In this document: in pieces, positions 6,820 through 45,018 of the stretch
Numbering within the stretch: position 1 is the first letter of the stretch
Layout: each line of letters opens with the position of its first letter
DNA from: Mimachlamys varia
Lineage: Eukaryota; Mollusca; Bivalvia; Pectinida; Pectinidae
DNA length: 64,000 bases
Direction of reading: 5' to 3'
Assembly: GCA_947623455.1 (NCBI GenBank)
Contig: OX392532.1
Coordinates: forward strand, 27,688,792 to 27,752,791
The notes under the pieces: model-generated
The model's database searches: none
Seen by the model: only the letters and a program-made list of their open reading frames with translations
What the model was told of the DNA's origin: nothing
Made by a program: the position numbers and the translations under genes

Positions 6820-6869
6820 TTAAGACTCTTCCTGTTCACCTTCAATATCCTCTACTCTCTGACTTTGTT
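6820..6869 (-). CDS. YWHAE: 14-3-3 C-terminal tail exon, cassette A
   Basis: Acceptor TTGTAATTGTAG; in phase with body A it reads E-QSQRVEDIEGEQEES and a TAA stop. It shares VEDIE with tail B. It lies about 130 bp beyond the end of the 7-kb palindromic minisatellite in transcript direction. As the last tail exon, its 3' UTR probably extends into the repeat-poor AT-rich DNA below 6.8 kb, but no signal was found in the first 500 nt. Confidence 0.86.
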
Positions 6870-7000
6870 CTACAATTACAATACAAAATCTGGTCAGTAT
6901 ACATTAACATTGAAACTCTTTCCAAAGTTTCATCCTCTGACAACCTGTTTAGTTATAACATTAACACTGATTGGGGCATAACCGTTAACCTCTAAAACCT

Positions 7001-10000
7001 CCAATGAGAGAGATCTCCCTCATTTCACAGTTCCAATGAGGGAGATCTCCCTCATTTCACATTTCCAATGAGGGAGATCACCCTCATTTCACAGTTCCAA
7101 TGAGGGAGATCTCCCTCATTCCACATTCAAATGAGGGAGTTCTCCCTCGTTTCACAGTTCCAATGAGGGAGATCACCCTCATTCCACATTCAAATGAGGG
7201 AGATCACCCTCATTCCACAGTTCCAATGAGGGGGCAACCCTCATTCCACATTTCCAATGAGGGAGATCTCCCTCATTTCACAGTTCCAATGGGGGAGTTC
7301 TCCCTCATTTCACATTTCCAATGAGGGAGATCACCCTCATTCCACATTCAAATGAGGGAGATCTCCCTCATTTCACATTTCCAATGAGGGAGATAACCCT
7401 CATTCCACAGTTCCAATGAGGGAGATCTCCCTCATTTCACATTTCCAATGAGGGAGATCTCCCTCATTCCACAGTTCCAATGAGGGAGATCACCCTCATT
7501 CCACATTCAAATGAGGGAGATCACCCTCATTTCACATTTCCAATGAGGGAGATAACCCTCATTCCACAGTTCCAATGAGGGAGATCTCCCTCATTTCACA
7601 TTTCAAATGAAGGAGATCTCCCTCATTCCACATTCAAATGAAGGAGATCTCCTTCATTTCACATTTCCAATGAGGGAGATAACCCTCATTCCACAGTTCC
7701 AATGAGGGAGATCTCCCTCATTTCACATTTCAAATGAAGGAGATCTCCCTCATTCCACAGTTCCAATGAGGGAGATCTCCCTCATTTCACAGTTCCAATG
7801 AGGGAGATCACTCTCATTTCACAGTTCCAATGAGGGAGATCACCCTCATTTCACAGTTCCAATGAGGGAGATCACCCTCATTCCACATTCAAATGAGGGA
7901 GATCACCCTCATTCCACAGTTCCAATGAGGGGGCAACCCTCATTCCACATTTCCAATGAGGGAGATCACCCTCATTCCACATTCAAATGAGGGAGATCAC
8001 CCTCATTCCACATTCAAATGAGGGAGATCACCCTCATTCCACAGTTCCAATGAGGGGGCAACCCTCATTCCACATTTCCAATGACGGAGATCACCCTCAT
8101 TCCACATTCATATGAAGGAGATCTCCCTCATTTCACATTTCCAATGAGGGAGATAACCCTCATTCCACAGTTCCAATGAGGGAGATCTCCCTCATTTCAC
8201 ATTTCAAATGAAGGAGATCTCCCTCATTTCACATTTCCAATGAGGGAGATAACCCTCATTCCACAGTTCCAATGAGGGAGATCTCCCTCATTTCACATTT
8301 CAAATGAAGGAGATCTCCCTCATTTCACAGTTCCAATGAGGGAGATCTCCCTCATTTCACAGTTCCAATGAGGGAGATCACCCTCATTCCACATTCAAAT
8401 GAGGGAGATCTCCCTCATTTCACATTTCAAATGAAGGAGATCTCCCTCATTTCACATTTCCAATGAGGGAGATAACCCTCATTCCACAGTTCCAATGAGG
8501 GAGATCTCCCTCATTTCACATTTCAAATGAAGGAGATCTCCCTCATTTCACATTTCAAATGAAGGAGATCTCCCTCATTTCACATTTCCAATGAGGGAGA
8601 TCACCCTCATTCCACATTTCCAATGAGGGAGATCTCCCTCATTTCACATTTCAAATGAAGGAGATCTCCCTCATTTCACAGTTCCAATGAGGGAGATCTC
8701 CCTCATTTCACAGTTCCAATGAGGGAGTTCTCCCTCATTCCACATTCAAATGAGGGAGATAACCTTCATTCCACATTTCCAATGAGGGAGATCTCCCTCA
8801 TTTCACAGTTCCAATGAGGGAGATCTCCCTCATTTCACAGTTCCAATGAGGGAGATCACCCTCATTCCACATTCAAATGAGGGAGATAACCTTCATTCCA
8901 CATTTCCAATGAGGGAGATCTCCCTCATTTCACAGTTCCAATGAGGGAGATCTCCCTCATTTCACAGTTCCAATGAGGGAGATCTCCCTCATTCCACATT
9001 CAAATGAGGGAGATCACCCTCATTCCACATTTCCAATGAGGGAGATAACCCTCATTCCACAGTTCCAATGAGGGAGATCTCCCTCATTTCACATTTCCAA
9101 TGAAGGAGATCTCCCTCATTTCACATTTCCAATGAGGGAGATCTCCCTCATTCCACATTCAAATGAGGGAGATCACCCTCATTCCACATTTCCAATGAGG
9201 GAGATAACCCTCATTCCACAGTTCCAATGAGGGAGATCTCCCTCATTCCACATTTCCAATGAAGGAGATCTCCCTCATTTCACATTTCCAATGAGGGAGA
9301 TCACCCTCATTCCACATTTCCAATGAAGGAGATCTCCCTCATTTCACATTTCCAATGAGGGAGATAACCCTCATTCCACAGTTCCAATGAGGGAGATCTC
9401 CCTCATTTCACATTTCAAATGAAGGAGATCTCCCTCATTTCACATTTCAAATGAAGGAGATCTCCCTCATTTCACAGTTCCAATGAGGGAGATCTCCCTC
9501 GTTTCACAGTTCCAATGAGGGAGATCACCCTCATTCCACATTTCCAATGAGGGAGATCACCCTCATTCCACATTCAAATGAGGGAGATAACCTTCATTCC
9601 ACATTTCCAATGAGGGAGATCTCCCTCATTTCACAGTTCCAATGAGGGAGATCTCCCTCAATTCACAGTTCCAATGAGGGAGATCTCCCTCATTCCACAT
9701 TTCCAATGAGGGAGATCTCCCTCATTTCACAGTTCCAATGAGGGAGATCTCCCTCAATTCACAGTTCCAATGAGGGAGATCTCCCTCATTTCACAGTTCC
9801 AATGAGGGAGATCTCCCTCATTCCACATTCAAATGAGGGAGTTCTCCCACGTTTCACAGTTCCAATGAGGGAGATCTCCCTCATTTCACAGTTCCAATGG
9901 GGGAGTTCTCCCACGTTTCACAGTTCCAATGAGGGAGATCTCCCTCATTCCACATTCAAATGAGGGAGCTCTCCCTCATTTCACAGTTCCAATGAGGGAG

Positions 10001-13000
10001 ATCTCCCTCATTTCACAGTTCCAATGAGGGAGATCTCCCTCATTTCACATTTCCAATGAGGGAGATCTCCCTCATTTCACAGTTCCAATGAGGGAGATCT
10101 CCCTCATTTCACAGTTCCAATGAGGGAGATCTCCCTCATTCCACATTCAAATGAGGGAGATCACCCTCATTCCACAGTTCCAATGAGGGAGATAACCCTC
10201 ATTCCACAGTTCCAATGAGGGAGATCTCCCTCATTTCACATTTCAAATGAGGGAGATAACCCTCATTCCACAGCAAATGAGGGAGATCTCCCTCATTTCA
10301 CATTTCAAATGAAGGAGATCTCCCTCATTTCACATTTCAAATGAAGGAGATCTCCCTCATTTCACAGTTCCAATGAGGGAGATCTCCCTCGTTTCACAGT
10401 TCCAATGAGGGAGATCACCCTCATTCCACATTTCCAATGAGGGAGATCACCCTCATTCCACATTCAAATGAGGGAGATAACCTTCATTCCACATTTCCAA
10501 TGAGGGAGATCTCCCTCATTTCACAGTTCCAATGAGGGAGATCTCCCTCAATTCACAGTTCCAATGAGGGAGATCACCCTCATTCCACATTTCCAATGAG
10601 GGAGATCACCCTCATTCCACATTCAAATGAGGGAGATAACCTTCATTCCACATTTCCAATGAGGGAGATCTCCCTCATTTCACAGTTCCAATGAGGGAGA
10701 TCTCCCTCATTTCACAGTTCCAATGAGGGAGTTCTCCCTCATTTCACAGTTCCAATGAGGGAGATCTCCCTCATTCCACATTCAAATGAGGGGAGTTCTC
10801 CCACGTTTCACAGTTCCAATGAGGGAGATCTCCCTCATTTCACAGTTCCAATGGGGGAGTTCTCCCTCATTTCACAGTTCCAATGAGGGAGATCTCCCTC
10901 ATTCCACATTCAAATGAGGGAGTTTTCCCTCATTTCACAGTTCCAATGAGGGAGATCTCCCTCATTTCACAGTTCCAATGAGGGAGATCTCCCTCATTTC
11001 ACATTTCCAATGAGGGAGATCACCCTCATTTCACAGTTCCAATGAGGGAGATCTCCCTCATTCCACATTCAAATGAGGGAGTTCTCCCTCGTTTCACAGT
11101 TCCAATGAGGGAGATCACCCTCATTCCACATTCAAATGAGGGAGATCACCCTCATTCCACAGTTCCAATGAGGGGGCAACCCTCATTCCACATTTCCAAT
11201 GAGGGAGATCTCCCTCATTTCACAGTTCCAATGGGGGAGTTCTCCCTCATTTCACATTTCCAATGAGGGAGATCACCCTCATTCCACATTCAAATGAGGG
11301 AGATCTCCCTCATTTCACAGTTCCAATGAGGGAGATCTCCCTCATTCCACAGTTCCAATGAGGGAGATCACCCTCATTCCACATTCAAATGAAGGAGATC
11401 TCCCTCATTTCACATTTCCAATGAGGGAGATAACCCTCATTCCACAGTTCCAATGAGGGAGATCTCCCTCATTTCACATTTCAAATGAAGGAGATCTCCC
11501 TCATTCCACAGTTCCAATGAGGGAGATCTCCCTCATTTCACAGTTCCAATGAGGGAGATCACTCTCATTTCACAGTTCCAATGAGGGAGATCTCCCTCAT
11601 TCCACATTTCCAATGAGGGAGATCACCCTCATTCCATATTCAAATGAGGGAGATAACCTTCATTCCCACATTTCCAATGAGGGAGATCTCCCTCATTTCA
11701 CAGTTCCAATGAGGGAGATCTCCCTCATTTCACAGTTCCAATGAGGGAGATCACCCTCATTCCACATTTCCAATGAGGGAGATCACCTTCATTCCACATT
11801 CAAATGAGGGAGATCACCCTCATTCCACATTTCCAATGAGGGAGATCTCCTTCATTTCACATTTCCAATGAGGGAGATAACCCTCATTCCACAGTTCCAA
11901 TGAGGGAGATCTCCCTCATTTCACATTTCAAATGAAGGAGATCTCCCTCATTCCACAGTTCCAATGAGGGAGATCTCCCTCATTTCACAGTTCCAATGAG
12001 GGAGATCACTCTCATTTCACAGTTCCAATGAGGGAGATCACCCTCATTTCACAGTTCCAATGAGGGAGATAACCCTCATTTCACATTCAAATGAGGGAGC
12101 TCTCCCTCATTCCACATTCAAATGAGGGAGATCACCCTCATTCCACATTCAAATGAGGGAGATCACCCTCATTCCACAGTTCCAATGAGGGGGCAACCCT
12201 CATTCCACATTTCCAATGAGGGAGATCACCCTCATTCCACATTCAAATGAGGGAGATCACCCTCATTCCACATTCAAATGAGGGAGATCACCCTCATTCC
12301 ACAGTTCCAATGAGGGGGCAACCCTCATTCCACATTTCCAATGAGGGAGATCACCCTCATTCCACATTCAAATGAGGGAGATCTCCCTCATTTCACATTT
12401 CCAATGAGGGAGATAACCCTCATTCCACAGTTCCAATGAGGGAAATCTCCCTCATTTCACATTTCAAATGAAGGAGATCTCCCTCATTTCACAGTTCCAA
12501 TGAGGGAGATCTCCCTCATTTCACAGTTCCAATGAGGGAGATCACCCTCATTCCACATTCAAATGAGGGAGATCTCCCTCATTTCACATTTCAAATGAAG
12601 GAGATCTCCCTCATTTCACATTTCCAATGAGGGAGATAACCCTCATTCCACAGTTCCAATGAGGGAGATCTCCCTCATTTCACATTTCAAATGAAGGAGA
12701 TCTCCCTCATTTCACATTTCAAATGAAGGAGATCTCCCTCATTTCACAGTTCCAATGAGGGAGATCTCCCTCGTTTCACAGTTTCAATGAGGGAGATCAC
12801 CCTCATTTCACAGTTCCAATAAGGGAGATCACCCTCATTCCACATTCAAATGAGGGAGATAACCTTCATTCCACATTTCCAAAGAGGGAGATCTCCCTCA
12901 TTTCACAGTTCCAATGAGGGAGATCACCCTCATTCCACATTTCCAATGAGGGAGATCACCCTCATTCCACATTTCCAATGAGGGAGATCTCCCTCGTTTC

Positions 13001-13994
13001 ACATTTCAAATGAGGGAGATCACCCTCATTCCACATTTCCAATGAGGGAGATCTCCCTCATTCCACATTTCCAATGAGGGAGATCTCCCTCATTTCACAG
13101 TTCCAATGAGGGAGATCTCCCTCATTTCACAGTTCCAATGAGGGAGATCACCCTCATTCCACATTCAAATGAGAGAGATAACCTTCATTCCACATTTCCA
13201 ATGAGGGAGATCTCCCTCATTTCACAGTTCCAATGAGGGAGATCTCCCTCATTTCACAGTTCCAATGAGGGAGATCTCCCTCATTTCACATTTCCAATGA
13301 GGGAGATCACCCTCATTTCACATTTCCAATGAGGGAGATAACCCTCATTCCACATTTCCAATGAGGGAGATCTCCCTCGTTTCACATTTCAAATGAGGGA
13401 GATCACCCTCATTCCACAGTTCCAATGAGGGAGATCTCCCTCATTTCACATTTCCAATGAGGGAGATCACCCTCATTCCACAGTTCCAATGAGGGAGATC
13501 TCCCTCATTTCACATTTCAAATGAAGGAGATCTCCCTCATTTCACAGTTCCAATGAGGGAGATCTCCCTCGTTTCACAGTTCCAATGAGGGAGATAACCC
13601 TCATTCCACATTTCCAATGAGGGAGATAACCCTCATTCCACAGTTCCAATGAGGGAGATCTCCCTCATTTCACATTTCAAATGAAGGAGATCTCCCTCAT
13701 TTCACAGTTCCAATGAGGGAGATCTCCCTCGTTTCACAGTTCCAATGAGGGAGATCTCCCTCGTTTCACAGTTCCAATGAAGGAGATCTCCCTCATTTCA
13801 CATTTCCAATGAGGGAGATCACCCTCATTTCACAGTTCCAATGAGGGAGATCTCCCTCGTTTCACAGTTCCAATGAGGGAGATCTCCCTCATTTCACATT
13901 CAAATGAGGGAGATCACCCTCATTTCACATTTCCAATGAGGGAGATCACCCTCATTTCACAGTTCCAATGAGGGAGATTTCCCTCATTTCACAT
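7001..13994. repeat. 7-kb palindromic minisatellite, about 32-bp unit
   Basis: Roughly 210-220 units of 31-32 bp. The commonest form is ccaatgagggagatctccct followed by catttcacagtt. Its core GAGGGAGATCTCCCTC is a perfect palindrome extending to AATGAGGG on each side. Variants alter the right arm (gatcac, gataac) or left arm (gaagg), or give gagggggcaaccctc. It fills most of the intron between body A and tail A. Decayed units continue to about 14130. Not a CRISPR array: there are no unique spacers. Confidence 0.95.
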
Positions 13995-14402
13995 TACCCT
14001 GAAGAAACTAGATCATTAGACCAAGGGATGTAGATTTTGATTTTGGACTTAAATGAGGGAGATTTCGAGGGAGATTGGTAAATTTTAATCAGAATAAGAG
14101 ATTCTCCATCATAATAACTAATGAGGGAGTATTAACGGGTATGTAAGGCACACTGACATAGGGCGAGGATAACCCCATGTCCACTAGATTTAGTCTGATG
14201 GTAAATAAATATTGGTGACCACTTACTCCACCGGCAACTGCAGATTTTCTTGCAGTTTTTACCTTTCCTTTGAGTTAATTTGACCACTATGTTTAAACCT
14301 TGGGCCAGTACTTTTGAACAAACTTGCTAAAAGGACCAGTTATGTTGATATTTTATTTCTTGCAATGTAGTACAAATTTTCCAAATTTTACAACCCATGT
14401 TA

Positions 14403-14563
14403 CAGTGATCAATTTACAATTTATTTTCATGGGTCCTTTTTGTAAATATTATCGAAAACTATTGGTCCCACAATGTTAAATTGAAGTATTTCCAGAATTT
14501 CTATGAGTCCTTTCATAATTTTATGAGTACTGGACTCGTGACTCGCAAGTAGATTGATCACTG
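14403..14563. mobile_element. MITE with CAGTGATCAAT ends and 5-bp target duplication
   Basis: 161 bp, starting CAGTGATCAATTTAC and ending GTAGATTGATCACTG, or tGATCACTG at the tip, flanked on both sides by TGTTA. The interior includes catgggtcctttttgtaa and cccacaatgttaaat. One of seven copies in this window. CAGTG ends with a 5-bp duplication would fit an hAT5-type non-autonomous element, but that is tentative. Confidence 0.75.
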
Positions 14564-14851
14564 TGTTACAGTGTTATTGGTTTTTTTTTTAATACAGGAA
14601 CTATGTACTTACATACATACTTAATAAATCAATATGGGAGGGTGGAGACACAACGTGCCGGGAGGTAGTAAAACGTACTGTAGATATCCTGTCGAACCTG
14701 CCGTGGATACAGGTGTATACAATGTACATGAGGTTTCCCCGCAAAAATCCAGGTAATGTACAGTAAAATAAGAGTCTAACATGACGGTCACACCACCGAC
14801 TCCCTATTTTACTGTACAATACTTAATAAATGGTGATGACAGAAAGGATTT

Positions 14852-15065
14852 TCCTTTTGTGTCATATGCTCAACAGCTATGGTCATTCAAGGATGTGAAA
14901 GATTTTGCAGTGGAGGAAAACCAGAGTTCCCGTAGAAAAACCACCAACCAATAGCCGGTAGCTGGTGTCTGCCAGCCCCACAGGTCTTGTACCTGTGACC
15001 TAGAGACGGAGGGCTAGTGGTAGCAGAATGTTGGATGCCTTAACCACTTGGTCATTGCAGCCTCT
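14852..15065. mobile_element. tRNA-type SINE copy
   Basis: Contains agctatggtcattcaaggat, gtagaaaaaccaccaac, tagctggtgtctgccagccc and a 3' part with gtgacctagagacgg, ccttaaccacttggtcattg. The order matches a SINE pattern I associate with mollusc genomes. The 124-codon minus-strand frame at 15014-15388 is not a gene. Confidence 0.55.
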
Positions 15066-15259
15066 TGAAGGATTGAAATGGGGTTAAATGAAGGGGTGCC
15101 TATCAAGCAGGTTATAATTAGGTCTAATGGTGTTGAAATCTGGGCCCAGATCAATTGTTCAAGGAATATTACTGAATATGTTATATTGGACAAATGTGAA
15201 TATAGTTTAACATTGTCATATTTTATTTTATCAGGTGGGACAAAATGATGAATGGCAAA

Positions 15260-16190
15260 AAAGAAAATACAACTGAACAATCCAGCAACCTTCAGGAAAT
15301 TATTGCCTTTCCCCAGAGATGTTTCAGACCAAATTTGTTGAAATCTCTCCAGGAATATGGGATTTGTTGGTTTCAGTTTAACAGCCAATCTATGATCAAT
15401 TAGGGCCGAGAAATATAGGAAGAGAATAATTTTAAAGCATCAGACCAAATTTTCCCTTAAGGGGCTCCCCCCTTAGCCCCAAGGTTCCCCAGTCATACAA
15501 ATTATAATTGCCTTCCCCAATGATGTTTCAGGCCAAATTTAGTTTAAATCTGTTTAGGCACAACAGATGAGATTAGTTTTGAAGCCTTATCCCCCAATTT
15601 CCCCTCAAATGGCCTCTATCTTTGTCCCTAGAGGTTGCAAAACCTTCAGTTATATAAATCATCATTGCCCTTCCCTCAATGATGTTTCAAGCCAAATTTA
15701 GTTGAAATTTGTCCAGTCTTATAGCAGAAGAATTCATCCCGTAATTTCCCCTAACCAGCCTCACCCCTTGACCCCAAGGGATCGCAATCCCTTCATATAA
15801 ATTATGATTACCCTTCCAAAATGATGTTTCAGGCTGGTAGAAATCTGATCAAGCATATCTAAAGAAAAGAATATTACAGCTTAATTTTCCAATATCTACC
15901 AACATGCCTCACCCATTCGTTGGCCGCTAGGGGGTTGCAATACTTTCAGCTATGATTGCCCTCCACAAATGGATTATTAAGAGTTGAAAAGTGTCAAGTT
16001 TATATCCGAGGAGAATAATTTCAAAATCAAATTCCCAATTATCCTAAATGGGCCTCATACCTTGGCCCCTTGGGTTTGCAACACCTACATTTTCGATATT
16101 ACGATTGCCCTCTCCTAATGATGTTTCAGGCCATACTTTATTTGAAATCTGTTCTGGCATATGGGAGAAGAAGCATTTTAAAGTAAAAGT
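15260..16190. repeat. Degenerate tandem repeat of about 150 bp
   Basis: Five or six diverged units, each with an atgatgtttcaggccaaatt core, an ttgaaatctg follow-up and a ccttgacccc/gggttgcaa segment (cores near 15316, 15528, 15683, 15824, 16119). It lies in the body A to tail A intron. Confidence 0.6.
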
Positions 16191-16290: not shown

Positions 16291-16640
16291 CATCTCCATC
16301 TTTAACGGACATGTCAGCTGTCCACAGTGTCAAGTTGTCTCTCAACAGCTGCATGATCAGGGTTGAATCCTTGTAGCTTTCCTCATTCAAGGAATCAAGT
16401 TCCTGAATGGCTGCATCGAAGGCTTTCTTTGCGACATCGCAGGCCCGTTCAGCCGAATTCAAAATCTCATAGTAGAACACCGAGAAGTTCAGGGCCAGAC
16501 CGAGCTTGATAGGATGTGTGGCTTGAAGATCACTTGCTCTTTCAGCAGCTAACTTGTAGGAGGTCAAGCTTTGCTCTGCCGTTTCCTTTCGTTCATTCCC
16601 AACAGCAAACTCAGCAAGGTAACGGTAATAGTCTCCCTGC
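16291..16640 (-). CDS. YWHAE: 14-3-3 body exon, cassette A (last alternative copy)
   Basis: 350 nt, acceptor TTATTTCCACAG, donor GTAAGG. Begins [19 protein letters not shown], then [20 protein letters not shown]; Arg127, Tyr128 and Asn173 are kept. The IRLGLAL motif has Lys for Arg, and the NSP motif is NSAERAC, so the Ser is not followed by Pro. It ends [29 protein letters not shown]. The tail exon is 9,421 nt away across a 7-kb minisatellite, by far the longest intra-cassette intron. Retention of the intron gives three more residues and a stop. Confidence 0.94.
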
Positions 16641-22267: not shown

Positions 22268-22299
22268 CTACTCAATGTCCTCCACTTCCTGCTGGTCTT
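22268..22299 (-). CDS. YWHAE: 14-3-3 C-terminal tail exon, cassette B
   Basis: 32 nt of coding sequence after acceptor TATGTCCACAG. In phase with body B it reads E-DQQEVEDIE and a TAG stop. It is the shortest tail and shares VEDIE with tail A. The intron from body B is 1,655 nt, about 1.1 kb of it minisatellite. An AATAAA hexamer lies about 220 nt downstream of the stop. Confidence 0.88.
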
Positions 22300-22854: not shown

Positions 22855-23935
22855 TTGCTACTCCTATATAGACCAGACATTTTGTATTTACTTCTATTTA
22901 GACTGAAGACATTGTATTTACTTCCATTTAGACCAGCGACACTGTATTTACTTCCATTCAGACCAGTGACACTGTATGTATTGCTATATAGATCAGTGAC
23001 ACTGTATTCACTTTTATATAGATCAGTGACACTGTATGTATTTCTATATAGATCAGTGACACTGTATTCACTTCTATATAGATCAGTGACACTGTATTCA
23101 CTTTTATATAGATCAGTGACACTGTATGTATTTCTATATAGATCAGTGACAATGTACTCACTTCTATATAGACCAGTGACACTGTATGTATTTCTATATA
23201 GATCAGTGACACTGTATTCACTTCTATATAGATCAGTGACACTGTATTCACTTTTATATAGATCAGTGACACTGTATTCACTTCTATATAGACCAGTGAC
23301 ACTGTATGTATTTCTATATAGATCAGTGACAATGTACTCACTTCTATATAGATCAGTGACACTGTATTCACTTCTATATAGATCAGTGACACTGTATTCA
23401 CTTCTATATAGACCAGTGACACTGTATGTATTTCTATATAGATCAGTGACACTGTATTCACTTCTATATAGATCAGTGACACTGTATTCACTTTTATATA
23501 GATCAGTGACACTGTATTCACTTCTATATAGACCAGTGACACTGTATGTATTTCTATATAGATCAGTGACAATGTACTCACTTCTATATAGATCAGTGAC
23601 ACTGTATTCACTTCTATATAGATCAGTGACACTGTATTCACTTCTATATAGACCCGTGACACTGTATGTATTTCTATATAGATCAGTGACAATGTACTCA
23701 CTTCTATATAGATCAGTGACACTGTATTCACTTCTATATAGATCAGTGACAATGTACTCACTTCTATATAGATCAGTGACACTGTATTCACTTCTATATA
23801 GATCAGTGACAATGTACTCACTTCTATATAGACCAGTGACAATGTACTCACTTCTATATAGACCAGTGACACTGTATGTATTTCTATATAGATCAGTGAC
23901 AATGTATTCACTTCTATATAGACCATCGACACTAC
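22855..23935. repeat. 30-bp minisatellite beside the body B donor
   Basis: About 36 exact-length 30-bp units (cttctatatagatcagtgac then actgtattca). A 120-bp higher-order pattern is visible: gaccagtgacactgtatgta recurs at 23171, 23291, 23411, 23531 and 23651. As 30 is a multiple of three, several frames stay open (328-420 codons), which is an arithmetic effect. It starts about 20 bp after the body B donor in transcript direction. Confidence 0.95.
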
Positions 23936-23954: not shown

Positions 23955-24310
23955 CTTCACCATCGTCATCTGTTTGTTTTTCTGATGTCCACAAACTCAA
24001 GTTGTCCCGAAGCAGTTGCATGATTAGCGTGGAATCTTTGTAATTTTCCTCTGGGAGCTTATCCAGTTCCCTGATAGCAGCATCAAAGGCCATTTTGGCA
24101 TGTTTGCAGGCCTTGTCAGGAGAGTTGAGTATCTCATAGTAGAAGACAGAAAAGTTAAGTGCCAGACCTAATCTGATTGGATGGGTCACGGGAAGGTCAG
24201 ATTCACTGATAGCGGTGGAGTCTTTGTACGCCTCCAGGGCCAAGTCCGTAACCTTTTTTCGGTCGTCCTCTGTTGCGATCTCGGCCATGTACCTATAGTA
24301 GTCTCCTCGC
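23955..24310 (-). CDS. YWHAE: 14-3-3 body exon, cassette B
   Basis: 356 nt, the longest body exon, with acceptor GTTTTTGTTGTAG and donor GTGAGA. Begins [10 protein letters not shown]; keeps Arg127, Tyr128, the [19 protein letters not shown] block and [18 protein letters not shown]. It is the only copy with the canonical NSPDKAC, hence the only one keeping the Ser-Pro that is a JNK target in some vertebrate 14-3-3 proteins. It ends [13 protein letters not shown]. Failing to use the donor gives a stop after two more codons. A 30-bp minisatellite begins about 20 bp past the donor. Confidence 0.94.
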
Positions 24311-25864: not shown

Positions 25865-26440
25865 TATACATTCTCGCAGGTCAATATGTGAAGAACATTC
25901 TCGCAGGTCAATATGTGAAGTACATTCTCGCAGGTCAATATGTGAAGTACATTCTCGCAGGTCAATATGTGAAGTACATTCTCGCAGGTCAATATGTGAA
26001 GTACATTCTCGCAGGTCAATATGTGAAGTACATTCTCGCAGGTCAATATGTGAAGTACATTCTCGCAGGTCAATATGTGAAGTACATTCTCGCAGTTCAA
26101 TATGTGAAGTACATTCTCGCAGGTCAATATGTGAAGTAAATTCGCGCAGGTCAATATATGAAGTACATTCTTGCAGGTCAATATGTGAAGAACATTCTCG
26201 CAGGTCAATATGTGAAGTACATTCTCGCAGGTCATTATGTGAATTACATTCACGCAGGTCAATATGTGAAGTACATTCTCGCAGGTCAATATGTGAAGTA
26301 CATTCTCGCAGGTCAATATATGAAGTACATTCTCGCAGGTCAATATATGAAGTTCATTCTCGCAGGTCAATATATGAAGTACATTCTCGCAGGTCAATAT
26401 GTGAAGTAAATTTGCGCAGGTCAATATATGAAGTTTACAC
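25865..26440. repeat. 27-bp minisatellite
   Basis: About 21 units of cattctcgcaggtcaatatg then tgaagta, with variants (attcgcgcagg, ggtcattatg). Length divisible by three explains the open frames of up to 205 codons. Confidence 0.95.
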
Positions 26441-27345: not shown

Positions 27346-27699
27346 ATCCTAAGATACCTGTGGTTATGACCCTCGCTGCTGTGTCTCCTTATATAATTAG
27401 GCACCTGTCCTAATTTGAACCTGGTCTAATCGATACACATTACTACCTGGCAAGTACCGCCGTTCCTATTGTCCTAAACACCATTACATTTGTGATTTTG
27501 TATTGCAAATTGTTGAAATTGAATGTTTTTTAACCTTATAGTATTTTGCCGTGCGGACAGCTGATCGTAGAATTCTACACACCATTGAGAGATGATGTAC
27601 TTGTCCAAATTTGTAGTTGTAGGTTCAAATAAGATCAAGTGTCTAAGGAGGCGCAACAGCGAGGGTCGAATGTGGGCAGGTGCCTTGGGAGACAAGACA

Positions 27700-28560
27700 G
27701 TCAGGGTCAAATGAGGGCAGGTGCCTTGGGAGACACAACAGCCTGGTTCAAATGAGGATGGGTGCCTATGGAGACACGACAGCCTAGTTCAAATGAGGAT
27801 AGGTGCCTAGAAAGACACAACAGCCTGGTTCAAATGAGGCTTGGTGCCTAAAAAGACACAACAGCCTGGTTCAAATGAGGATGGGTGCCTAGAAAGACAC
27901 AACAGCCTGGTTCAAATGAGGATTGGTGCCTAAAAAGACAACAGCCTGGTTCAAACGAGGATGGGTGCCTAGAAAGACACAACAGCCTGGTTCAAATGAG
28001 GATTGGTGCCTATGGAGACACGACAGCTTAGTTCACATGAGGGCAGGTGCCTATGGAGACACAACAGCCTAGACTAGTTCAAATGAGGGCAGGTGCCTAT
28101 GGAGACACGACAGCCTGGTTCAAATGAGGATGTGTATCCAGCAAGACAATGGCAAGGGTCAAATGAGGGCAGGTGCCTATGGAGACACGACAGCCTGGTT
28201 CAAATGAGGGCAAGTGCTTATGGAGACACGACAGAGTCAAATGAGGATGGGTGCCTAGAAAGACAAAACAGCCTGTTTCAAATGAGGACGTGTATCCAGG
28301 GAGACAACGGCAAGGGTCAAATGAGGGCAGGTGCCTATGGAGACACGACAGCCTGGTTCAAATGAGGGCAAGTGCTTATGGAGACACGACAGAGTCAAAT
28401 GAGGATGGGTGCCTAGAAAGACAAAACAGCCTGTTTCAAATGAGGACGTGTATCCAGGGAGACAACGGCAAGGGTCAAATGAGGACAGGTGTCTTAAGAA
28501 GAAATTATAGCCAGGGTTAAATACTCATGAGACCGAGTGCCTTAGGAGACACAACAGTCA
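27700..28560. repeat. 41-bp minisatellite with 158-bp higher-order unit
   Basis: About 20 units of roughly 41 bp (agacacaacagcctggttca then aatgaggatgggtgcctaga). In the right half a 158-bp block recurs: gtgtatccag at about 28131, 28289 and 28447. Confidence 0.9.
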
Positions 28561-33975: not shown

Positions 33976-34028
33976 CTATGATTCTTGCTGTTCAATGTCC
34001 TCCAACACTCCATCTTGCTGTTGCTCAT
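33976..34028 (-). CDS. YWHAE: 14-3-3 C-terminal tail exon, cassette C
   Basis: Acceptor TTTTTGTTTACAG; joined to body C it gives D-EQQQDGVLEDIEQQES and a TAG stop. The EDIE core is shared with tails A and B, which argues for common descent of the tail exons. It is 1,448 nt beyond body C, and that intron holds a large fold-back element. No AATAAA or ATTAAA was seen on the minus strand in the next 500 nt or so, so the 3' end is undefined. Confidence 0.88.
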
Positions 34029-35823: not shown

Positions 35824-36551
35824 CTGTAAAAAAATTTCAAACACATGAATCTGTCATAACTTTGGATTACATTTTTTTATATGTCATACATAACATAGCA
35901 ACAATGGCATTTAATTAGCTTGCCCCCATCCAACCTTCTTACTAGATCTTATCAGATGTATTCCAACTTTTTCCTTTTTTAAACTAAATGTGGTTTTACT
36001 TCTGGTGGAATAGGAAATGCCCCATAAGGTATTAATATTTAGGTTACATCTACACAGTACGACACTTAAAAGCCAGGAAACCCATACTTCGCAGCCTGTT
36101 GCTGAACAAACATGAACGCAAGGATTTATCATGTCATCTTTCACCTTTCAGTTATACAAGCATGTCATAATAGCATTCCTGATTAATATCCGTCATCTTA
36201 ACCAGCAAAAGCCAATGCATTAATCTGGTTTATATATATATATATATATTGTATTTATGTTTACAACAGCGTATTATATCCATAGTAACATTCCGACCTA
36301 TTTATTTACTTTGTAAAAATTGCAATTCTTTTTATGTCTTATCAAGTTAAGGTATCTCACCATTTACAAATATCACTGAATCACTGCCTTATCAAGGAAA
36401 TTGTTGTTTTTTCAAACTAGGATTGAATTTGTCAATAAAACCATTTCAGCTGATCTGAAGTCAAGAATGCAATCTTTGATTCAAATTGACCAGCAAAAAC
36501 CTGCTGGATATTTGCACTAAATTTCGCATCATAGTTTTACACTCACATACG

Positions 36552-36845
36552 CTAAATACACTCCTGGAATATGTCATGGCAACACACTGAAGGCACAAAG
36601 ATACCAGTTGGTCTCTGGGGAGGGGGGGGGGGGGACCTGACCTAGCACTGGGCTGATGTCTTTGAGGATTACAAAGGAGACGCAACCCACCTCAAAGCGC
36701 ATCATTTTTCACCATTATGTGACCGCAGGATTATTACGATTTTCATTTAATTTCTCGCTTCATCAACAGAGCCTTCAGTTTTGCAACAACATATTTCAGG
36801 GGTGTATACAATGCAGGTGAGCATAACCCCTGGATATTGAGGATG
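36552..36845. mobile_element. Partial copy of the MULE-like family
   Basis: Contains cactcctggaatatgtcatgg near the left, agacgcaaccc and atgtgaccgc inside, and a right end of taacccctggatattgagg then atg. The outer left terminal repeat is missing. A 13-nt G run lies inside (36622-36634). Confidence 0.55.
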
Positions 36846-36979
36846 ACATTTTTGTGGACTGTTGCTTCTTTTATTTAAATCTCTTCCCCACCCAAACACT
36901 GTATATCCTGGAATGCTGCATAATTATGTTTTATTTTGTGCAATGGAACTTGTTATGGTATAGTCTTTAAACCTTTCAA

Positions 36980-37122
36980 CAGAGTTCTCATTAAAAGCCG
37001 GTTGCCGGCAAAAGTAGCCTGTTATTCAAAATTTTATATATATCAACATTACAGAATGTGAAAATTCAACCAGCGTTTCTTTGGAAGTCAGCCAATTATT
37101 GCAAAACTAAGTGAGAACACTG
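36980..37122. mobile_element. CAGTGTTCTC-type MITE, inverted copy
   Basis: Starts cagagttctcatt and ends gtgagaacactg; ccggcaaaagtagcctgtta matches 18531-18689 inverted. No clean target duplication. Confidence 0.6.
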
Positions 37123-37493
37123 ATCTGTCTATGGGACCATCTTTGTGCATACAAGATTTCCCTAACCCGGGGATCATATAACATTTTTTGCATGTTCTGT
37201 TAGTCTGTTCATGTAGTTCAGTCAGAGGTACATGTTTTCTTTGTTATCTACAGAAGAGCTTCCTTTGTAATGTAATTTATTATCATCCGATAATGTTATA
37301 AAAGGAATCATTCTCCATACTACTTGGGTTTGACTTGCTTGAATCGCTCTCTGCACTCCCGGAATATATTTAATTACGAATGAAGGTTTGCAATTTCAGA
37401 GCATGTTCTAAACAATGTGGATGGGACAATTGACTAGTTTGATCCATTGAAGAACATCCAAAGAATCTCACAATCACTCAACAGTAAACAGTC

Positions 37494-37644
37494 CAGTGAT
37501 CAATCTACGTGCAAGTCCAGAGTCCTGTATCATAAAATTATGCTGGGACTCATAGAAATACTTCAATTTAACATTGTGGAACCCATCTTTTTTAGCAATA
37601 TGTACTAAAAGACCCCATGAAAATAAATTGTAAATTGATCACTG
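37494..37644. mobile_element. CAGTGATCAAT MITE, copy 3 (inverted)
   Basis: 151 bp in the opposite orientation: starts CAGTGATCAATCTACGTG, ends aaattgatcactg. Flanks are related (AGTC) but no clean duplication is seen. Confidence 0.7.
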
Positions 37645-37790
37645 AAAGTCACATGTCCCTAAAGGACAGATATCAACCTAGTGATTGGTCAGGGGATTTT
37701 TACACGAGACCAGTTAAATATGGTAGCAATCTCTGTGTCTTCAGATTTGCTATAACAGAGCAAGGGGAGCACAAGTGAGTGTATCCCCCT

Positions 37791-37813
37791 GGGGGGGGGG
37801 GGGGGGGGGGGGG
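37791..37813 (+). repeat. Poly-G run of 23
   Basis: Longest of several long homopolymers: C runs at 18842-18859 and 52121-52142, G runs at 50809-50826, 36622-36634 and 62783-62795. Lengths in an assembly may be unreliable. Confidence 0.9.
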
Positions 37814-38060
37814 TATACGTAGCAGAGGTAAGATTCAAGGATGCTACCGACAGTACAGTGAAATTGCCCAATTGCAACGAGTCCACATCACAGGCAGACA
37901 ATATAATGCAATAAGGTCAATGGCCTGGACTATGTAGTTAGTCCCTCCCAGAAGCTGTAGCATTTTTTCTGTCATTATAAAAATATCTATTGATCAACTA
38001 CTAATACCAACACTCTGTGAGCATGACCAGTTTATCCTAAGTGATGCCATTTTTGAGTTT

Positions 38061-38730
38061 GCAGGGATCACTTTTGGGCGAGATTTGGGGATTTTTACTC
38101 ATATTTTTACAGAAGATCTCATTGCAAATTCAAAACTGTATTACTTTATATAGAAAAATCTCAGATATTTTGCTGATCCCATAAAATCCCTCAAATTCTC
38201 CCATAGGTTTTAAGAGTCAGAATTATCCCTGAATTTGTATCATGAAACATGTCGTTTATATAAATCTTTGTATGGTCCAAATAGCATTAAAATCCATCTA
38301 TTCTGAACATGCTTGGGTATTGCAGCAACTTGAACAAAGAATGAATACCTAAACCGTCTTTATCGAACAATGTAGCCCTTCAGGCCAACACCTTCAATTC
38401 AAACAAGTTTTAGTTCTCTTTACCAGAATTGCTTACAATGGATTCCAGAGGGATATTACCCAACCATCTTGCTACATGTTATGTAGATGCAATAGATCTT
38501 TGTCAATTCAGTAATTATCTGCTTAATCGAGCCATGTAAAAGTAAAGGCACCTTTACAGGGATAATGCCGACTCTTATAACCTATGGCAGAATTTGAGGG
38601 ATTTCATGGGATCAGCAAGATATCTACGAAATTTTTCTATATAAAGTATTATAATATTGAATTTTCAATGAGATTTTCAGGAAAAATATGGGTAAAAATC
38701 ACCTAATCTTGCCCAAAAGTGATCCCTGCC
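38061..38730. mobile_element. Fold-back element
   Basis: Inverted arms at 38061-38220 and 38570-38730, sharing gcagggatcacttttgggc and gctgatcccat with scattered mismatches; about 350 bp lie between them. Confidence 0.7.
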
Positions 38731-41700
38731 TTTAGGTAACTTTTAATCTAAGCTTCATATAAAATTGGTTCTTGTTGGACTATCCCTGGGAAATATTAAT
38801 ATTCATAGATAGCTACATAATTTTTTTTTTTCCATAAAGATACATGCATAAATTTTAACCAATACGGAACCTTCCGGTCTTTTTTGAGAAAATAGCGATA
38901 AACAAACTTTTCAAAATCCAAGATGGCAACATGGTAGCCATGTTTTTAAGACAAGTCTCAATATGAATCATACACAACAAAGGACCCACAGACGAAATTT
39001 GAGAGAGATCCCACCAGTAATAACTTACTGAAAATGTCCAAATCTAAGAATGGCCACAGGTCAGCGATAAGACTCGAAAGTAGACATGTACAACTCCGGA
39101 ACAAAGATTTACGCAAAATTTGAGAAAAATTTTGATATTTTCCTGACATTTCCCACGTGGGGCCCCCACTGACACCTCTTAGCCCCGAAGAAGGGGTTAG
39201 GCTTCAGTTTATTCGAATATGAGTCCCTTTTCCCAAAGTATGGTCCAGATCACATTCAGTTGAAATTTCCCTCACTGCCCCTTTTTGGGCCAGCGCCTAA
39301 ACCCCATCCTCTCTTCAAATAAAATGCCCTTTGCCCAAAAATTCAGATTAAATCTCTTTCATAGTAAATCAATAGCAGAATTTTCAAATTATCAGAAAAT
39401 TTGTAATTATTCAAGACTGCAATTCCATACACCTTAATGCAGTTGGATTTTTCAATATATGTGTGTTAAAGCCATTTTTTCTCTTGGTAAGCACATTAGT
39501 AACTCAAGGTAAATGGTACCACTGCATAGTTATAACTGCCAAGAACTCCACGAGTATTATCCCGTCTATATTTTCTAAATTTACACTTTGCACTACTATT
39601 CGAACATCACAACAAAGGAAATGACAGGATTTGAAATTTGAGGTACCAAAGTCCAACCCTGCCATTTCCATTTTCTAAAAATATCTAACATTTCAATCAA
39701 CTCTGCGTAAAATACAGGACAGGAAGTAATTTTATGAAATACCTCTTTTGAAAGGCTTAAAAAATAGTTCCTATTGGTAGCCTAGTTTAACACATTTGTT
39801 GCCTGTTAAAGAGATAGCTTTACTTGTAGACCTTTCAGGAATAGTGAAAGGCACAAGGTTTGACAAGGCCAAAAGCTTTGTACCCAATAAATTAACACCT
39901 ACTTTTATATCACACCCAAAGAGACCAGAGAAAAGGTCAAGTGATACATGTGAAAATAAACAAGGGTGTTAATTATGATATCAGCATCACCCCAACACTT
40001 ATTTATTGTGCGAAATGATGCACTGAACTTGAAAACCAGGGGACGGAATTGTTTTGAGGTCCACACATTTGAACAGAAGACAGAACAACAACAGATATAT
40101 ATGTATATTTTAATGGTTTCACATTAATTCTGTTAAAACAAAACAATGAGGAATACATAAAGATTATGTGGATATTGAGTAATAATTAATTATAAAAACA
40201 AGCACAAACTAGATTGATGATAGTATTGGTATACATTTTTTTTTCTGGGGCTTTTCACCTTTGATAACTTTATTGAAGCTGATTTTTGTTAGAATTTGCA
40301 TGCTTAAATGTTGATAATGTTTGTAACAGGTATTTTCATATATCTGTTTAGATTTAATCTTTATTCATCTAACTGAAAATGAATCAATTTTTTAAAAAAC
40401 ATGTTTAATTTGTATCAGTAATAAATAATTTCAAAGGCCAAGAAGTCAAGCCCAAAATCTGGTACAGTAAAACTTTTGACTGTTAGCCCGGTAACTAGAA
40501 GTTTTCTTGTTTTAAATTTGTCTATATCTGAACTAAAATAGCCCATTATAAATCAACCTATTGTTCATAGTCTACTACTACCCAGAATTCCACCTTTATC
40601 AGCTAAAAATATCAATAATTTAACCAATGTGGCAGCAAATGAACCACAGCCACAACATTCAGATCGAAATAACTTCATTTAGCAAGCCACTATATAAATC
40701 AACACATTTCATCACACAACTAATGATACCAATTGATCAACACTATTTCAACAAATTCTTTTTCATGGACCTTGTCAAATATGACCAACAGCCAGTATCC
40801 ACTTAAGTCTTGTGCTACATTTTGAATATGGTAATATTACTCCTCCTATATATATGTCATTGAACTACTTATATTTCTGTAATGCTACACCTAAGAGACT
40901 TTCTTGCCATTTGTATATTCATTCTGCCACTATTCAACTGCAGGAGGTTTCCTGTCCAAAAAAAAACGGGGCTCAACTTTTTGTACTCCCTTTAGACAAC
41001 TTTTTGTTAATTTGTTGAAGAAAAATTCCAATGTTAGTTCACTTTCTTCAGAGATATAAAAGTAAAAAGATTTTTAGAATATCAAATATTTGGAAGGAAA
41101 AAAAAGAAGAAATGGGAGAACAGAAAAGGAAAATAACTGTCATTTTGGCAAGTCGAAGGAAGGTGGTCATTGCTTAAACACAAAGATAAAATCCTGCTTT
41201 TCATCCTTACAAATTCATAGGCACAACATGCACGTAAAACACAGGAAATGCAACAATTATTACAAATAGCAAAGACAGTACTACTGTTTTACTGTTGTGA
41301 ATTTTGTGATGAAAATGATACACAAATATTTACCTTACACAATATTGGACAATAATAAAACTATGCGAAACTTGCAATCAGAAAAAAGATAAAAACAGAA
41401 AAAAGTTTGGGAGGTTCAAAGGATTGGCAAAAAATATTTCTGGTAGCTCGAGGCAAACAACAACAAATGACAACCATTCCATCCTTACACCACTTTTTTC
41501 ATTTGCATTTTTCTAGTGTACTTGCAGTAAAATTTAATATCCCACTAAATAAGTCACTTTTTCATAATTCGATATACATTACAGATTTTAATATTACTTT
41601 AGTAGAACATCCAATACAAACATACAGATCATCTGTATTTTTAACAAAACAAAGACGAAAAATCTTTTTTTTTTAACTTTAAATTTCATGTGAAAATTGA

Positions 41701-41913
41701 TTTGAAATTGTCATAGTCTCACAATACATACACTTAACTTAGGCTAATGCTGAAGTTTAGATCAAAATTTTCACAATACATTATTACAACAATGTAAACA
41801 TCACATTCCCATTCCAAAGTCCATACGATAGTCCTGTCTATTTGCTAGTTGATGAAGTGAATGTAATAATCGTAGTGTCCTCAGCATTGAGGGATCATAT
41901 GATGGAGATCAGG

Positions 41914-41954
41914 TCAATTCTGCTCCTGCTCCTGCTCTGCGTCCTGTTCCTCTC
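41914..41954 (-). CDS. YWHAE: 14-3-3 C-terminal tail exon, cassette D
   Basis: Acceptor TTTTGTTCACAG at 41966-41955. Joined in phase 1 to body D it gives G-EEQDAEQEQEQN and a TGA stop. The tail is acidic and Gln-rich, as expected for the flexible 14-3-3 C-terminus, but lacks the EDIE motif of the other three tails. It lies 2,732 nt beyond the body D donor. ATTAAA-type sequences on the minus strand at 41592-41587 and 41538-41533 are possible polyadenylation signals. Very short exon, called from acceptor, phase, composition and position; transcript data would settle it. Confidence 0.82.
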
Positions 41955-44686
41955 CTGTGAACAAAACACAAAATTGTCAATCACGAAGACCAGCTCAAGG
42001 TCACATCATTACTAGTTCTTGTACTGTTCCGGACTAACAGGGTTTTACCTGAAGGTAGATTAGAAATCTCATTTTATAGAAGGCGAGAGAACTCCTTTGT
42101 TCCCTGGCATAGGGTTACAACAAAACCTTAATTTTACTGCTGAAATGCAAGTTATAATATCCTTTTTGTAATAAATGTAACAGCACTGTTCATCAAAGAT
42201 AACTGCTTTTCAATCTCAAAACAAGATGTTCAACTTTCCAAGGAATGAGGGTTTATTATAATATGTATTGATCTCTGAACTCAATTACCCTTATAATGAA
42301 CCTTGAATTACAAGAGTTTAAATGTTTTCAGGGGTGTATGATTTATGTGTCTTCTCCTATTTTATCAAGATATATGAATTGTCAACATCTTTTTACAATA
42401 AAATTTTTATTTTTGAATTCATTAAAACATGACAACCAACCATATCCAGTTGAAAAACTTGCTGGATCATCCTTTTATGTCAATTTGTAAAGCAATATCT
42501 TACTTTCCAATGGAGAAGAAATCTCACATAAATCATGATGTCAATTGATATTAAAATACAGCTTCAATTTAATAATATAAAAGACATAAGAAAATGTTGC
42601 AACTTGATTTTGAAATGGATGAAAATTAAATGCTTTCAGACTACGGTATATCCCTATATGTAGCATGAAGATCATCGATACTAGTGTTCACTTCACAGGT
42701 TAGCACTGGTGAAAGCGTAATACACACTATGGTAGAAGCACATTGAAAACACAAAGCATGAAAACACGAGAATTTATGCACCATAATAACTTTGCTTATT
42801 ACTCAAGTTGGATCTTTCTTTCCCTTCCCAACATAAAATCTACCAGACCTGGATGTAATGCTAGAGAAACTGTATACTTATGCATATATGAAAATATTGG
42901 GCTAAAATATATTTTCTTATTCTGCTTTAGAGAGTTTGTCAAAATTATGTTCCCCAAGTTACATCAAGATTGTGTCCCTGCACTGTTCCTTCAACCTTTA
43001 GAAGTGGCGTCAAATGTTCCCATTCAGAGTTCAATCATTAATTTCATACACAAATTGAGTATGGACTCAAACTTGCATGTAAGGATTTATATCTCCAACA
43101 AAAATATTCACACAAAGCTATTCAAAAGATTTCCTAATCATTCACAATTTACTGGGAGGAAATTTCTGAATTTTGTAAGTCTAATTATTTGTATTCGGAA
43201 GTAAAACAGGTAAACATTTTTCTGACACGAATTCAAGCAAATTCATAATTTTGTATTAGGTTTACTTGATTAATAAGCTGATTGCTCATGATTCATGGAT
43301 TTTGATACATAACTGATACAAATTGATGTCAAATAAAGTTCAAGTTTACATGAAAACTTGATGTAAACTTGATGCTACCAAGAAGAATATACGGTAAACC
43401 TTCGGTTAGTTCGAATCAGCGGATAATTCGAACGCAGCATTTTAGTAACAGAAAAAACAAATTTTTTGACTCCTAATAGTTCGAACCTTGCTTACACAGG
43501 TTTCGGATAGTTCGAACACACAGAATTTGATTAGACCTGTGTACTGAACTTATGTAACGGATTGCTCTCGGCAATACAATTTACAGCCACGCAAAACTTG
43601 TGCAAAGAGATCTATTTTCACACCATCGATTATAACAACAGTATAACGTGTAGTACTCGTGATGTGTGATATTGTTGTCAGCTTTTTCGGACAATTTTTG
43701 CATAAACGAGCCACATTTTACCAATGTTTCTTTCTTGTTAACATGAACATGTGCACGCGCTAATCAAACATCTTTATGACCCCGATCAGCATCGGACCGG
43801 AGCGCGGAATAAAGTGTCACACATGCCGACAGGTACGTGTGTATTATCATGGCATTACTGTGTTAAATTTTGATTATATAATCGCAGCCTGGTCACTGAT
43901 ACCTGATTTATATCTTAATTGATATATTACATATACAACTGCCTAGACCAAATAATCGATCAGGTATTCGATCGAAGTATTAATCCGTAATTAAGTGCAG
44001 TTTCAATCCAACATCCGCATAGGCCTTAGGATAAATTACATAAACTTCCGACGGTGGTTACGGCATAAAATATTTTCTCTTCTTTGCGAATTGATACTTG
44101 ATAATTAGGCCTAATATGAAATTGAACATTTAAGCCCTCTCATTGCTCATCTTCAGATTTACAAATAATCGTAATTGGCCATCATTGTTGAGGAACAACG
44201 ATTTGACTCTTTGCTGTAATTTTTTTTGCCAATGTCAAAAGTTCTCGGATGTCAACATGGATAGTTCGAACTCCTCTTTATTCCAGCGGCTGTAATTTCG
44301 TATAATTCGATCAGGATTGACAATATTTATTTAATTTTGGTGGAACTGACCGAAGGTTTATCGTATTGCCCCTTTTTCTTCCCAATCGAAAAAAATAACC
44401 AATAGATATCCTATTTAAAACTTAAGATGTTACATTTTCCCTCCAACCTTTAGAAATATCTTAAATCAGAATGTTCCATTGACAGGGAATTTAACTACCC
44501 CATCTCATAATTGGTCACCGCCCTAATGGACAAAATTTGATCTGGTCACCGATTATAAACAAATGTCATGAAAATGGAATTCTACTTTCATTTCAGCGTA
44601 TTCATGAAGCTTCATTTTTCGCTTCAAAGTATGAAAATAATCTTTGACCAGTTTTTTCATTGGATCCTATCGAAATAAGGTCGTAC
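41955..44686 (-). other. Intron inside cassette D
   Basis: 2,732 nt between body D and tail D. Nearly 1 kb is a TA-flanked non-autonomous transposon (43392-44363). A 153-codon open frame on the plus strand (42743-43204) is AT-rich and unrecognised. Confidence 0.75.
43392..44363. mobile_element. TA-flanked non-autonomous transposon (Tc1/mariner/pogo type)
   Basis: 972 bp. Left end CGGTAAACCTTCGGTTAGTT, right end inverted CGATAAACCTTCGGTCAGTT, TA on both sides (43390-43391 and 44364-44365). The interior repeats ttcgaac motifs. No transposase frame visible. An internal stretch near 43860-44000 resembles 29765-29900. Confidence 0.7.
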
Positions 44687-45018
44687 CATTTTGCTGATTC
44701 CATAGTGTTAAGTTATCTCTGAGAAGCTGCATTATTAACGTAGAATCCTTGTAACTTTCCTCCTCCAATGAATCCAGTTCGCTGATGGCATCATCAAAAG
44801 CTCTCTGAGCAGTTTCTTGAGCATCCTGGTATTTTCCTTTTATCTCGTAGTGAAACACGGAGAAGTTTAAGGCCAAACCCAACCGGATCGGATGAGTGGA
44901 TTGCAATTCTGATCTTGCCAATGAAACTGCCTCTGAATAAGCTTGTTCACTTTTCTCTGTCACCTCTGCCTTATCCTCTACAGATATTTCTGCCAAGTAT
45001 CTATAGTAGTCGCCACAC
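44687..45018 (-). CDS. YWHAE: 14-3-3 body exon, cassette D (first alternative copy)
   Basis: 332 nt, acceptor TATTTTGCAG, donor GTACGA, encoding helices F-I. Starts [10 protein letters not shown], so Arg127 and Tyr128 (zeta numbering) of the phosphate pocket are kept, as is [10 protein letters not shown] with Asn173 and the [19 protein letters not shown] block. It is the most divergent copy: [13 protein letters not shown] is replaced by [13 protein letters not shown], removing the Ser-Pro of the helix H region, and the exon ends LWNQQN, lacking the usual Thr after LW. If unspliced it reads five more codons to a stop. The exon is open, with conserved residues in place, so it looks functional rather than decayed. 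Confidence 0.92.

What the first reader, a model, noticed from the sequence alone, without database searches (positions are those of the whole stretch)
6820..45018. Four tandem two-exon cassettes give alternative C-terminal halves of one 14-3-3 protein
A single set of N-terminal exons is followed by four body+tail cassettes. All four bodies are open, have good splice sites in matching phase, and keep the phosphate-binding Arg-Tyr, [10 protein letters not shown] and QLLRDNL blocks while diverging elsewhere. That points to purifying selection on four functional alternatives. Drosophila 14-3-3 zeta uses mutually exclusive exons, but a fourfold duplication of body plus tail together in an epsilon-type gene is not something I know of.
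Basis: partly seen in the sequence, partly recalled or inferred. Interest (0 to 1): 0.92.

Follow-up and report, generated by a model that had tools for sequence, protein, structure and literature searches.

The report
Scallop 14-3-3 gene with four endings
One scallop gene appears to make four versions of a common signalling adaptor protein by joining the same front half to any one of four different back halves, an arrangement also predicted in other scallops that may let one gene supply several adaptors.

Summary
On the minus strand, exons 1-3 encode the N-terminal half of a 14-3-3 protein. Four open body exons follow, each with its own short acidic tail exon. All bodies enter in phase 2 and leave in phase 1, so a transcript with two bodies, or with none, is frameshifted. 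Deposited proteins from five other scallop genera carry these bodies: Mizuhopecten, Pecten and Ylistrum list all four as isoforms X1-X4 on one N-terminal half. In trees the bodies form four cross-species groups (support 95-100; 88-100 without a faulty row). The cassettes therefore predate the sampled genera and were kept. The window's own genome showed no fifth cassette and no second exon 2 of this type; its other 14-3-3 matches are three zeta-type genes and one divergent gene. Best reading: one epsilon-like gene with alternative two-exon terminal cassettes, like Drosophila pip in layout and like Drosophila 14-3-3zeta in family. How a cassette is chosen is unknown (weak scan negative).

The parts
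61630..61693 (-). exon 1, ATG start, MGEREECVYRSKLAEQAERYE
   Evidence: joins exon 2 in frame; like the start of the scallop isoforms
59291..59508 (-). exon 2, constitutive N-terminal half; holds the Lys and Arg of the phosphate pocket (K50, R57 in the numbering of P0017; roles recalled)
   Evidence: only match of its kind in the genome search
56372..56481 (-). exon 3, constitutive, ends ...FYYK + AT of the Met codon (phase 2); shared donor
   Evidence: donor 8 of 9
44687..45018 (-). body 1 (332 nt), most divergent body, [13 protein letters not shown] in place of [13 protein letters not shown]
   Evidence: orthologues in 4 other scallop genera
41914..41954 (-). tail 1; with the last base of body 1 it reads GEEQDAEQEQEQN*
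   Evidence: same tail in P0017, P0018, P0121; one change in P0041
35477..35823 (-). body 2 (347 nt)
33976..34028 (-). tail 2, DEQQQDGVLEDIEQQES*
23955..24310 (-). body 3 (356 nt); a second GT six bases upstream would keep the same phase
22268..22299 (-). tail 3, EDQQEVEDIE*
16291..16640 (-). body 4 (350 nt)
6820..6869 (-). tail 4, EQSQRVEDIEGEQEES*

Best explanation
This is one 14-3-3 gene, most likely the epsilon gene of a scallop. Exons 1-3 make a constant N-terminal half (helices A to D and the start of E; the half that holds the dimer interface in known 14-3-3 proteins, recalled). The exon-3 donor is then joined to one of four terminal cassettes. Each cassette is a body exon (rest of helix E to helix I, with the Arg-Tyr of the phosphate pocket and much of the client groove) plus its own acidic tail exon with a stop codon. 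The body length (2 modulo 3) makes the choice exclusive at the protein level: two bodies, or a tail joined without a body, give a frameshift. Shown here: anatomy, phases, frameshift logic, conservation of all four bodies in other scallops, and no other epsilon-like match in the own-genome search. Inferred: that all four are spliced in this animal, that the choice couples splicing with cleavage and polyadenylation behind each tail, and that isoforms can mix into up to ten dimer types differing mainly in helix F and helix H.
For: Exon structure and phases. Body-body joins (6 of 6) and exon3-tail joins (4 of 4) break the frame. Sixteen of 16 scallop rows listed carry one of the four bodies; Mizuhopecten, Pecten and Ylistrum have all four, each set with one contig length. 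Four cross-species groups: c1 100 (5 bodies), c2 99 (6), c3 95 (5), c4 99 (6); 100, 96, 88, 95 after leaving out a faulty outgroup row. Mean identity within a cassette 73.7-88.4%, between cassettes 59.6-68.3%. Third codon positions change most in 6 of 6 body pairs. Own-genome Pfam search: 12 matches, 5 of them this gene, no further cassette and no other exon 2 of this type. A model of the Mizuhopecten body-1 isoform folds as a nine-helix 14-3-3 (pLDDT 87) with 14-3-3 epsilon as top PDB match, TM 0.90.
Against: No transcript was seen: the scallop isoforms are deposited predictions and their RNA support was not visible to me. For Argopecten only two and for Mimachlamys only two full isoforms were listed. 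Two other deposited models (P0008 Mizuhopecten, P0012 Mimachlamys) join bodies 3 and 4 without the N-terminal half. The Ylistrum cassette-2 isoform has a different tail (P0206). The body-1 donor is weak. AATAAA/ATTAAA hexamers follow each tail, but they were not tested against chance. No docking-selector pairing was found. The full-length tree does not place the gene with epsilon.
Confidence: 0.9

Rival explanations
1. Four tandem genes or partial genes: cassettes 2-4 are transcribed from their own promoters, as separate genes that share only ancestry with cassette 1.
For: Deposited models P0008 and P0012 begin with sequence unlike 14-3-3 and contain bodies 3 and 4 only. The bodies are 7-11 kb apart (coordinates).
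Against: No second copy of the N-terminal exons in the window; no 14-3-3 motif in 9.9 kb downstream and 9.2 kb upstream; no other exon 2 of this type in the genome search (exons 1 and 3 are too short for it). A body alone lacks the dimer half and two of the four phosphate-binding residues. Three genera have full X1-X4 sets joined to one N-terminal half.
Confidence: 0.05
2. Only one or two cassettes are used; the rest are decaying duplicates.
For: Unequal divergence: cassette 3 is the least conserved between species (mean 73.7%); weak body-1 donor.
Against: All four are open, keep the same phases and groove residues, and recur across genera; body 1, with the weakest donor, is the best conserved (88.4%). 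Codon-position pattern in all six pairs.
Confidence: 0.03
3. Free mixing: any body can be joined to any tail downstream of it, giving up to ten body-tail proteins instead of four.
For: Every body leaves in phase 1 and every tail enters in phase 1, so all such joins are in frame.
Against: In the 16 deposited full-length isoforms the tail appears, by eye, to follow its own cassette, with P0206 as the one odd tail; tails 2 and 4 resemble each other, so a swap between them could be missed.
Confidence: 0.1
4. Assembly artefact (uncollapsed haplotypes).
For: Bivalve genomes are often highly heterozygous (general knowledge).
Against: Bodies differ at 33-39% of residues, far beyond alleles, and the same four recur in other scallops.
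Confidence: 0.01

Closest known systems
Drosophila 14-3-3zeta (leonardo) mutually exclusive exons
   Same: A 14-3-3 gene with an exclusive choice among duplicated exons; three exons in D. melanogaster (PMC6071210, passages read).
   Different: There a single internal exon is swapped and the C-terminus is shared (recalled); here body plus terminal tail exon are swapped as a unit, four times, in a non-zeta gene.
Drosophila pip (pipe) terminal exon clusters
   Different: Unrelated protein family, different phylum.
Drosophila PGRP-LC 3' variable regions
   Same: Exclusive choice among 3' variable regions, said to involve competing RNA structures (PMC9013439 passage).
   Different: No competing structure found here by a simple scan; unrelated protein.
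Deposited scallop 14-3-3 isoforms X1-X4 (Mizuhopecten yessoensis, Pecten maximus, Ylistrum balloti)
   Same: Apparently the same gene: alike N-terminal half and all four bodies.
   Different: Other species; the database names (epsilon-like, artA-like, 14-3-3 protein 2-like, 14-3-3-like protein 1) do not tell that they form a cassette system.

Membership tests
14-3-3 family (PF00244) | Whole-domain profile match | tested here: met
   All four isoforms, E 1.9e-90 to 2.1e-94, profile 3-223 of 223
14-3-3 family (PF00244) | Phosphate-binding Lys, Arg, Arg, Tyr | tested here: met
   K50, R57, R133, Y134 (P0017 numbering) invariant in 25 aligned relatives; the same residues are read in the four window isoforms. 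Roles recalled.
14-3-3 family (PF00244) | Nine-helix fold | tested here: met
   Model of Mizuhopecten P0017, pLDDT 87, top PDB hit 14-3-3 epsilon; the window's own proteins were not modelled
14-3-3 epsilon subfamily | Closest to epsilon by sequence | tested here: met
   Best PDB hits of body 2 and isoform 1 are 14-3-3 epsilon; a yeast 14-3-3 is third
14-3-3 epsilon subfamily | Clusters with epsilon in a tree | tested here: inconclusive
   Scallop isoforms together 100, outside the zeta clade (100) and outside the epsilon group (71); nearest branch is the fungal outgroup at support 29
Mutually exclusive exon cluster | Tandem homologous exons, same phases, double inclusion breaks the frame | tested here: met
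Mutually exclusive exon cluster | Exactly one exon in each mature transcript | not testable with these tools
   No RNA data; 16 deposited isoforms with an N-terminal half each have one body
Docking-selector (competing RNA structure) cluster | One intron element complementary to elements beside each variant | tested here: inconclusive
   Exact 8- and 10-mer complements of intron 3 in 800-nt flanks: no excess over 40 Markov resamples; G-U pairs, gapped helices and docking sites outside intron 3 were not tested
pip-like alternative terminal cassettes | Each variant ends in its own stop and terminal exon | tested here: met
   Four tail exons with stops; 3' ends of transcripts not seen

The most novel reading that the evidence does not exclude
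This scallop has no conventional epsilon gene: apart from zeta-type genes and one divergent gene, its only 14-3-3 locus has become a swapping system in which one dimerising half is joined to four client-reading halves, kept as four specialised isoforms since before the sampled scallop genera split and able to form up to ten dimer types from one promoter. Cassettes 1 and 4 lack the Ser-Pro site of the helix G-H loop (a JNK target in zeta, recalled) in all species seen, so isoform choice could also set stress control.
Probability: 0.5. Interest if true: 0.65.

Novelty: new variant of a known kind. Interest (0 to 1): 0.48.

Why it matters
14-3-3 isoform diversity is usually explained by gene duplication (seven genes in mammals, recalled). 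Here one locus keeps the dimer half constant and varies the client-facing half, while the groove helices stay frozen (45 of 106 body columns invariant in 22 scallop bodies; 15 of 21 in helix I, 12 of 17 in helix G, 1 of 22 in helix F). That is a natural experiment on which surfaces outside the groove give 14-3-3 isoform specificity, and a further case, besides Drosophila zeta, of exon swapping in the C-terminal part of the protein.

Tried and rejected
Separate genes, decaying copies and assembly duplicates were considered and judged unlikely (see rivals). Free body-tail mixing is not excluded.

Shared 8-10-mers in the 600 nt beside the bodies: none in all four upstream or all four downstream flanks, none in three of four upstream flanks. 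Complement scan of intron 3 against 800-nt flanks: counts within the range of the resamples, partly AT repeats. Rfam: no match at gathering scores. Search of phage records with body 1: no match, an uninformative control. A bacterial promoter scan is not meaningful for an animal gene and is not used. The first tblastn of the bodies used a wrong frame, and the first isoform-1 join was one base off; both were mended. In one search the Elysia zeta row contained a repeated model; I reran the tree without it and support for the cassette groups fell to 100, 96, 88 and 95. Support values printed after rerooting were shifted on some branches; those quoted are the splits recomputed. The order of the duplications is not resolved (c1+c3 82, c1+c2+c3 77, c4 with Lottia epsilon 65).

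Literature: ten searches. Searches found no paper; some searches listed papers (the top 20 only), none of which appears from its title, the start of its abstract or the passages read to describe this gene. The library holds only openly licensed PMC papers. PMC6071210, PMC11802352 and PMC9013439 were seen as passages; all others as search listings only.

Full report
Observation. The finding is on the minus strand. Exon 1 (61693-61630) starts with ATG; exon 2 is 59508-59291; exon 3 is 56481-56372 and ends two bases into a Met codon. Four body exons follow: 45018-44687, 35823-35477, 24310-23955 and 16640-16291. Each begins with the G that completes the Met codon and each is 2 modulo 3 long (332, 347, 356, 350 nt), so each enters in phase 2 and leaves in phase 1. 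A script that looked for short acidic phase-1 terminal exons after AG sites gave seven candidates in the window; four of them lie one behind each body and encode 14-3-3-like tails (41954, 34028, 22299, 6869). The four spliced proteins are 254, 263, 259 and 263 aa and match Pfam 14-3-3 over profile positions 3-223 of 223.

Exclusivity. Joining any body to a later body gives a stop 8 to 41 residues past the first body (6 of 6 joins), and joining exon 3 directly to any tail breaks the frame (4 of 4). So among these joins only transcripts with exactly one body encode a full 14-3-3 protein. Body-to-tail joins are in frame in all combinations by phase.

Selection. In the six body pairs, amino acid identity is 61-67%, and codon positions 1, 2 and 3 differ at 33-42, 21-30 and 62-73 of 109-116 codons. 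In each pair 37-41 of the 64-74 identical residues use different codons. This is the pattern of old duplicates under protein constraint; no formal rate test was made.

Relatives. Three protein searches listed 120 hits each (of 7990, 7991 and 7994). One search, which scored the N-terminal half alone, listed 16 scallop proteins: four each from Mizuhopecten yessoensis, Pecten maximus and Ylistrum balloti (isoforms X1-X4), two from Argopecten irradians, two from Mimachlamys nobilis. That these are scallops, and that the window therefore comes from a scallop, is my inference from the names. I read all 16: each has one of the four bodies (c1 4, c2 5, c3 3, c4 4). Two further models, P0008 and P0012, hold bodies 3 and 4 without the N-terminal half. 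A tree of 22 scallop bodies (4 from the window, 16 from these proteins, 2 from P0012; P0008 was left out) with 12 epsilon proteins and one zeta row gave four cross-species groups: c1 100, c2 99, c3 95, c4 99. The zeta row was faulty; without it the support is 100, 96, 88, 95. Thus the four cassettes were probably in place before the sampled genera split. The order of duplication is unresolved; c4 and c2 are nearest to ordinary epsilon (mean identity 76.1 and 74.7%, against 67.9 for c3 and 64.7 for c1). For three other bivalves (Mactra, Sinanodonta, Dreissena) I read one listed protein each, an ordinary epsilon; further isoforms there are not excluded. I saw no oyster or mussel among the listed hits, so the origin is not dated.

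Own genome. The assembly has 975 Mb in 71 contigs. A Pfam search gave 12 matches: five in this gene (four bodies and exon 2), four exon pieces of one gene on C14, two genes in single open frames on C16 and one divergent gene on C8. In a full-length tree the C14 pieces and both C16 genes fall in the zeta clade (support 100); the window isoforms join those of other scallops (100) outside it and outside the epsilon group, next to the fungal outgroup at support 29. The C8 gene was not in the tree. No fifth cassette was found in the genome search, and no 14-3-3 motif in the adjoining 9.9 and 9.2 kb. Exons 1 and 3 are too short for the Pfam search to rule out stray copies.

Structure. The Mizuhopecten body-1 isoform P0017, the most unusual one, was modelled as a nine-helix 14-3-3 (pLDDT 87, pTM 0.83); the best PDB matches are 14-3-3 epsilon (TM 0.90, 61% identity). 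K50 and R57 lie in exon 2, R133 and Y134 in the body, and all are invariant in 25 proteins. Across 22 scallop bodies 45 of 106 columns are invariant, most densely in helices G (12 of 17), I (15 of 21) and the end of E (7 of 10); only 1 of 22 columns in helix F is. Of 20 columns in which at least two cassettes are fixed for different residues, 7 fall in helix H and 5 in helix F. The Ser-Pro of the G-H loop is absent from all c1 (5 of 5) and c4 (6 of 6) bodies, present in 5 of 6 c2 bodies (not in the window's) and 3 of 5 c3 bodies (read from the sequences); that it is a JNK site in zeta is recalled.

Mechanism. Best reading: alternative terminal cassettes from one promoter. RNA polymerase passes cassette 1 first and cassette 4 about 28 kb later; the choice must involve both the splice from exon 3 and 3'-end formation behind a tail. 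How it is set is not known. Drosophila 14-3-3zeta is reported to use competing RNA structures (PMC6071210 passages; PMC11802352 passages), but a simple exact-complement scan found no such element here; the test was weak without other scallop introns.

Comparison. The kind is known: exclusive exons in Drosophila 14-3-3zeta, and tandem clusters of exclusive terminal exons in Drosophila pip (PMC9013439 passage). What is new, as far as the ten literature searches show, is the combination: body plus tail swapped as one unit, four times, in a non-zeta 14-3-3 gene, kept across scallops, and in this genome apparently in place of a conventional epsilon gene. The isoforms themselves are already in databases under mixed names.

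Noticed in passing
7000-13993: A 7 kb array of about 220 copies of a 32-bp unit whose consensus holds a 20-bp palindrome sits in the body4-tail4 intron, about 130 nt before the tail-4 acceptor; 72 perfect 20-mers. Similar arrays lie on many contigs of the genome (347 matches reported, with 40 of 822 first-look candidates scored, so a lower bound).
   Followed up: partly
22883-23933: A 30-bp minisatellite (35 copies) begins about 20 nt after the body-3 donor and fills much of the body3-tail3 intron.
   Followed up: partly
589-1856; 25867-26434; 27622-28491: Further minisatellites with 53-, 27- and 41-bp units, the first two open in several frames.
   Followed up: no
L001, L002 (own genome C16): Two zeta-type 14-3-3 genes in single open frames, likely retrocopies, with diverged sequences.
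   Followed up: partly
L003 (own genome C8): A divergent 14-3-3-like open frame (407 aa) with a long charged N-terminal extension rich in Asp, Arg and Ser.
   Followed up: no
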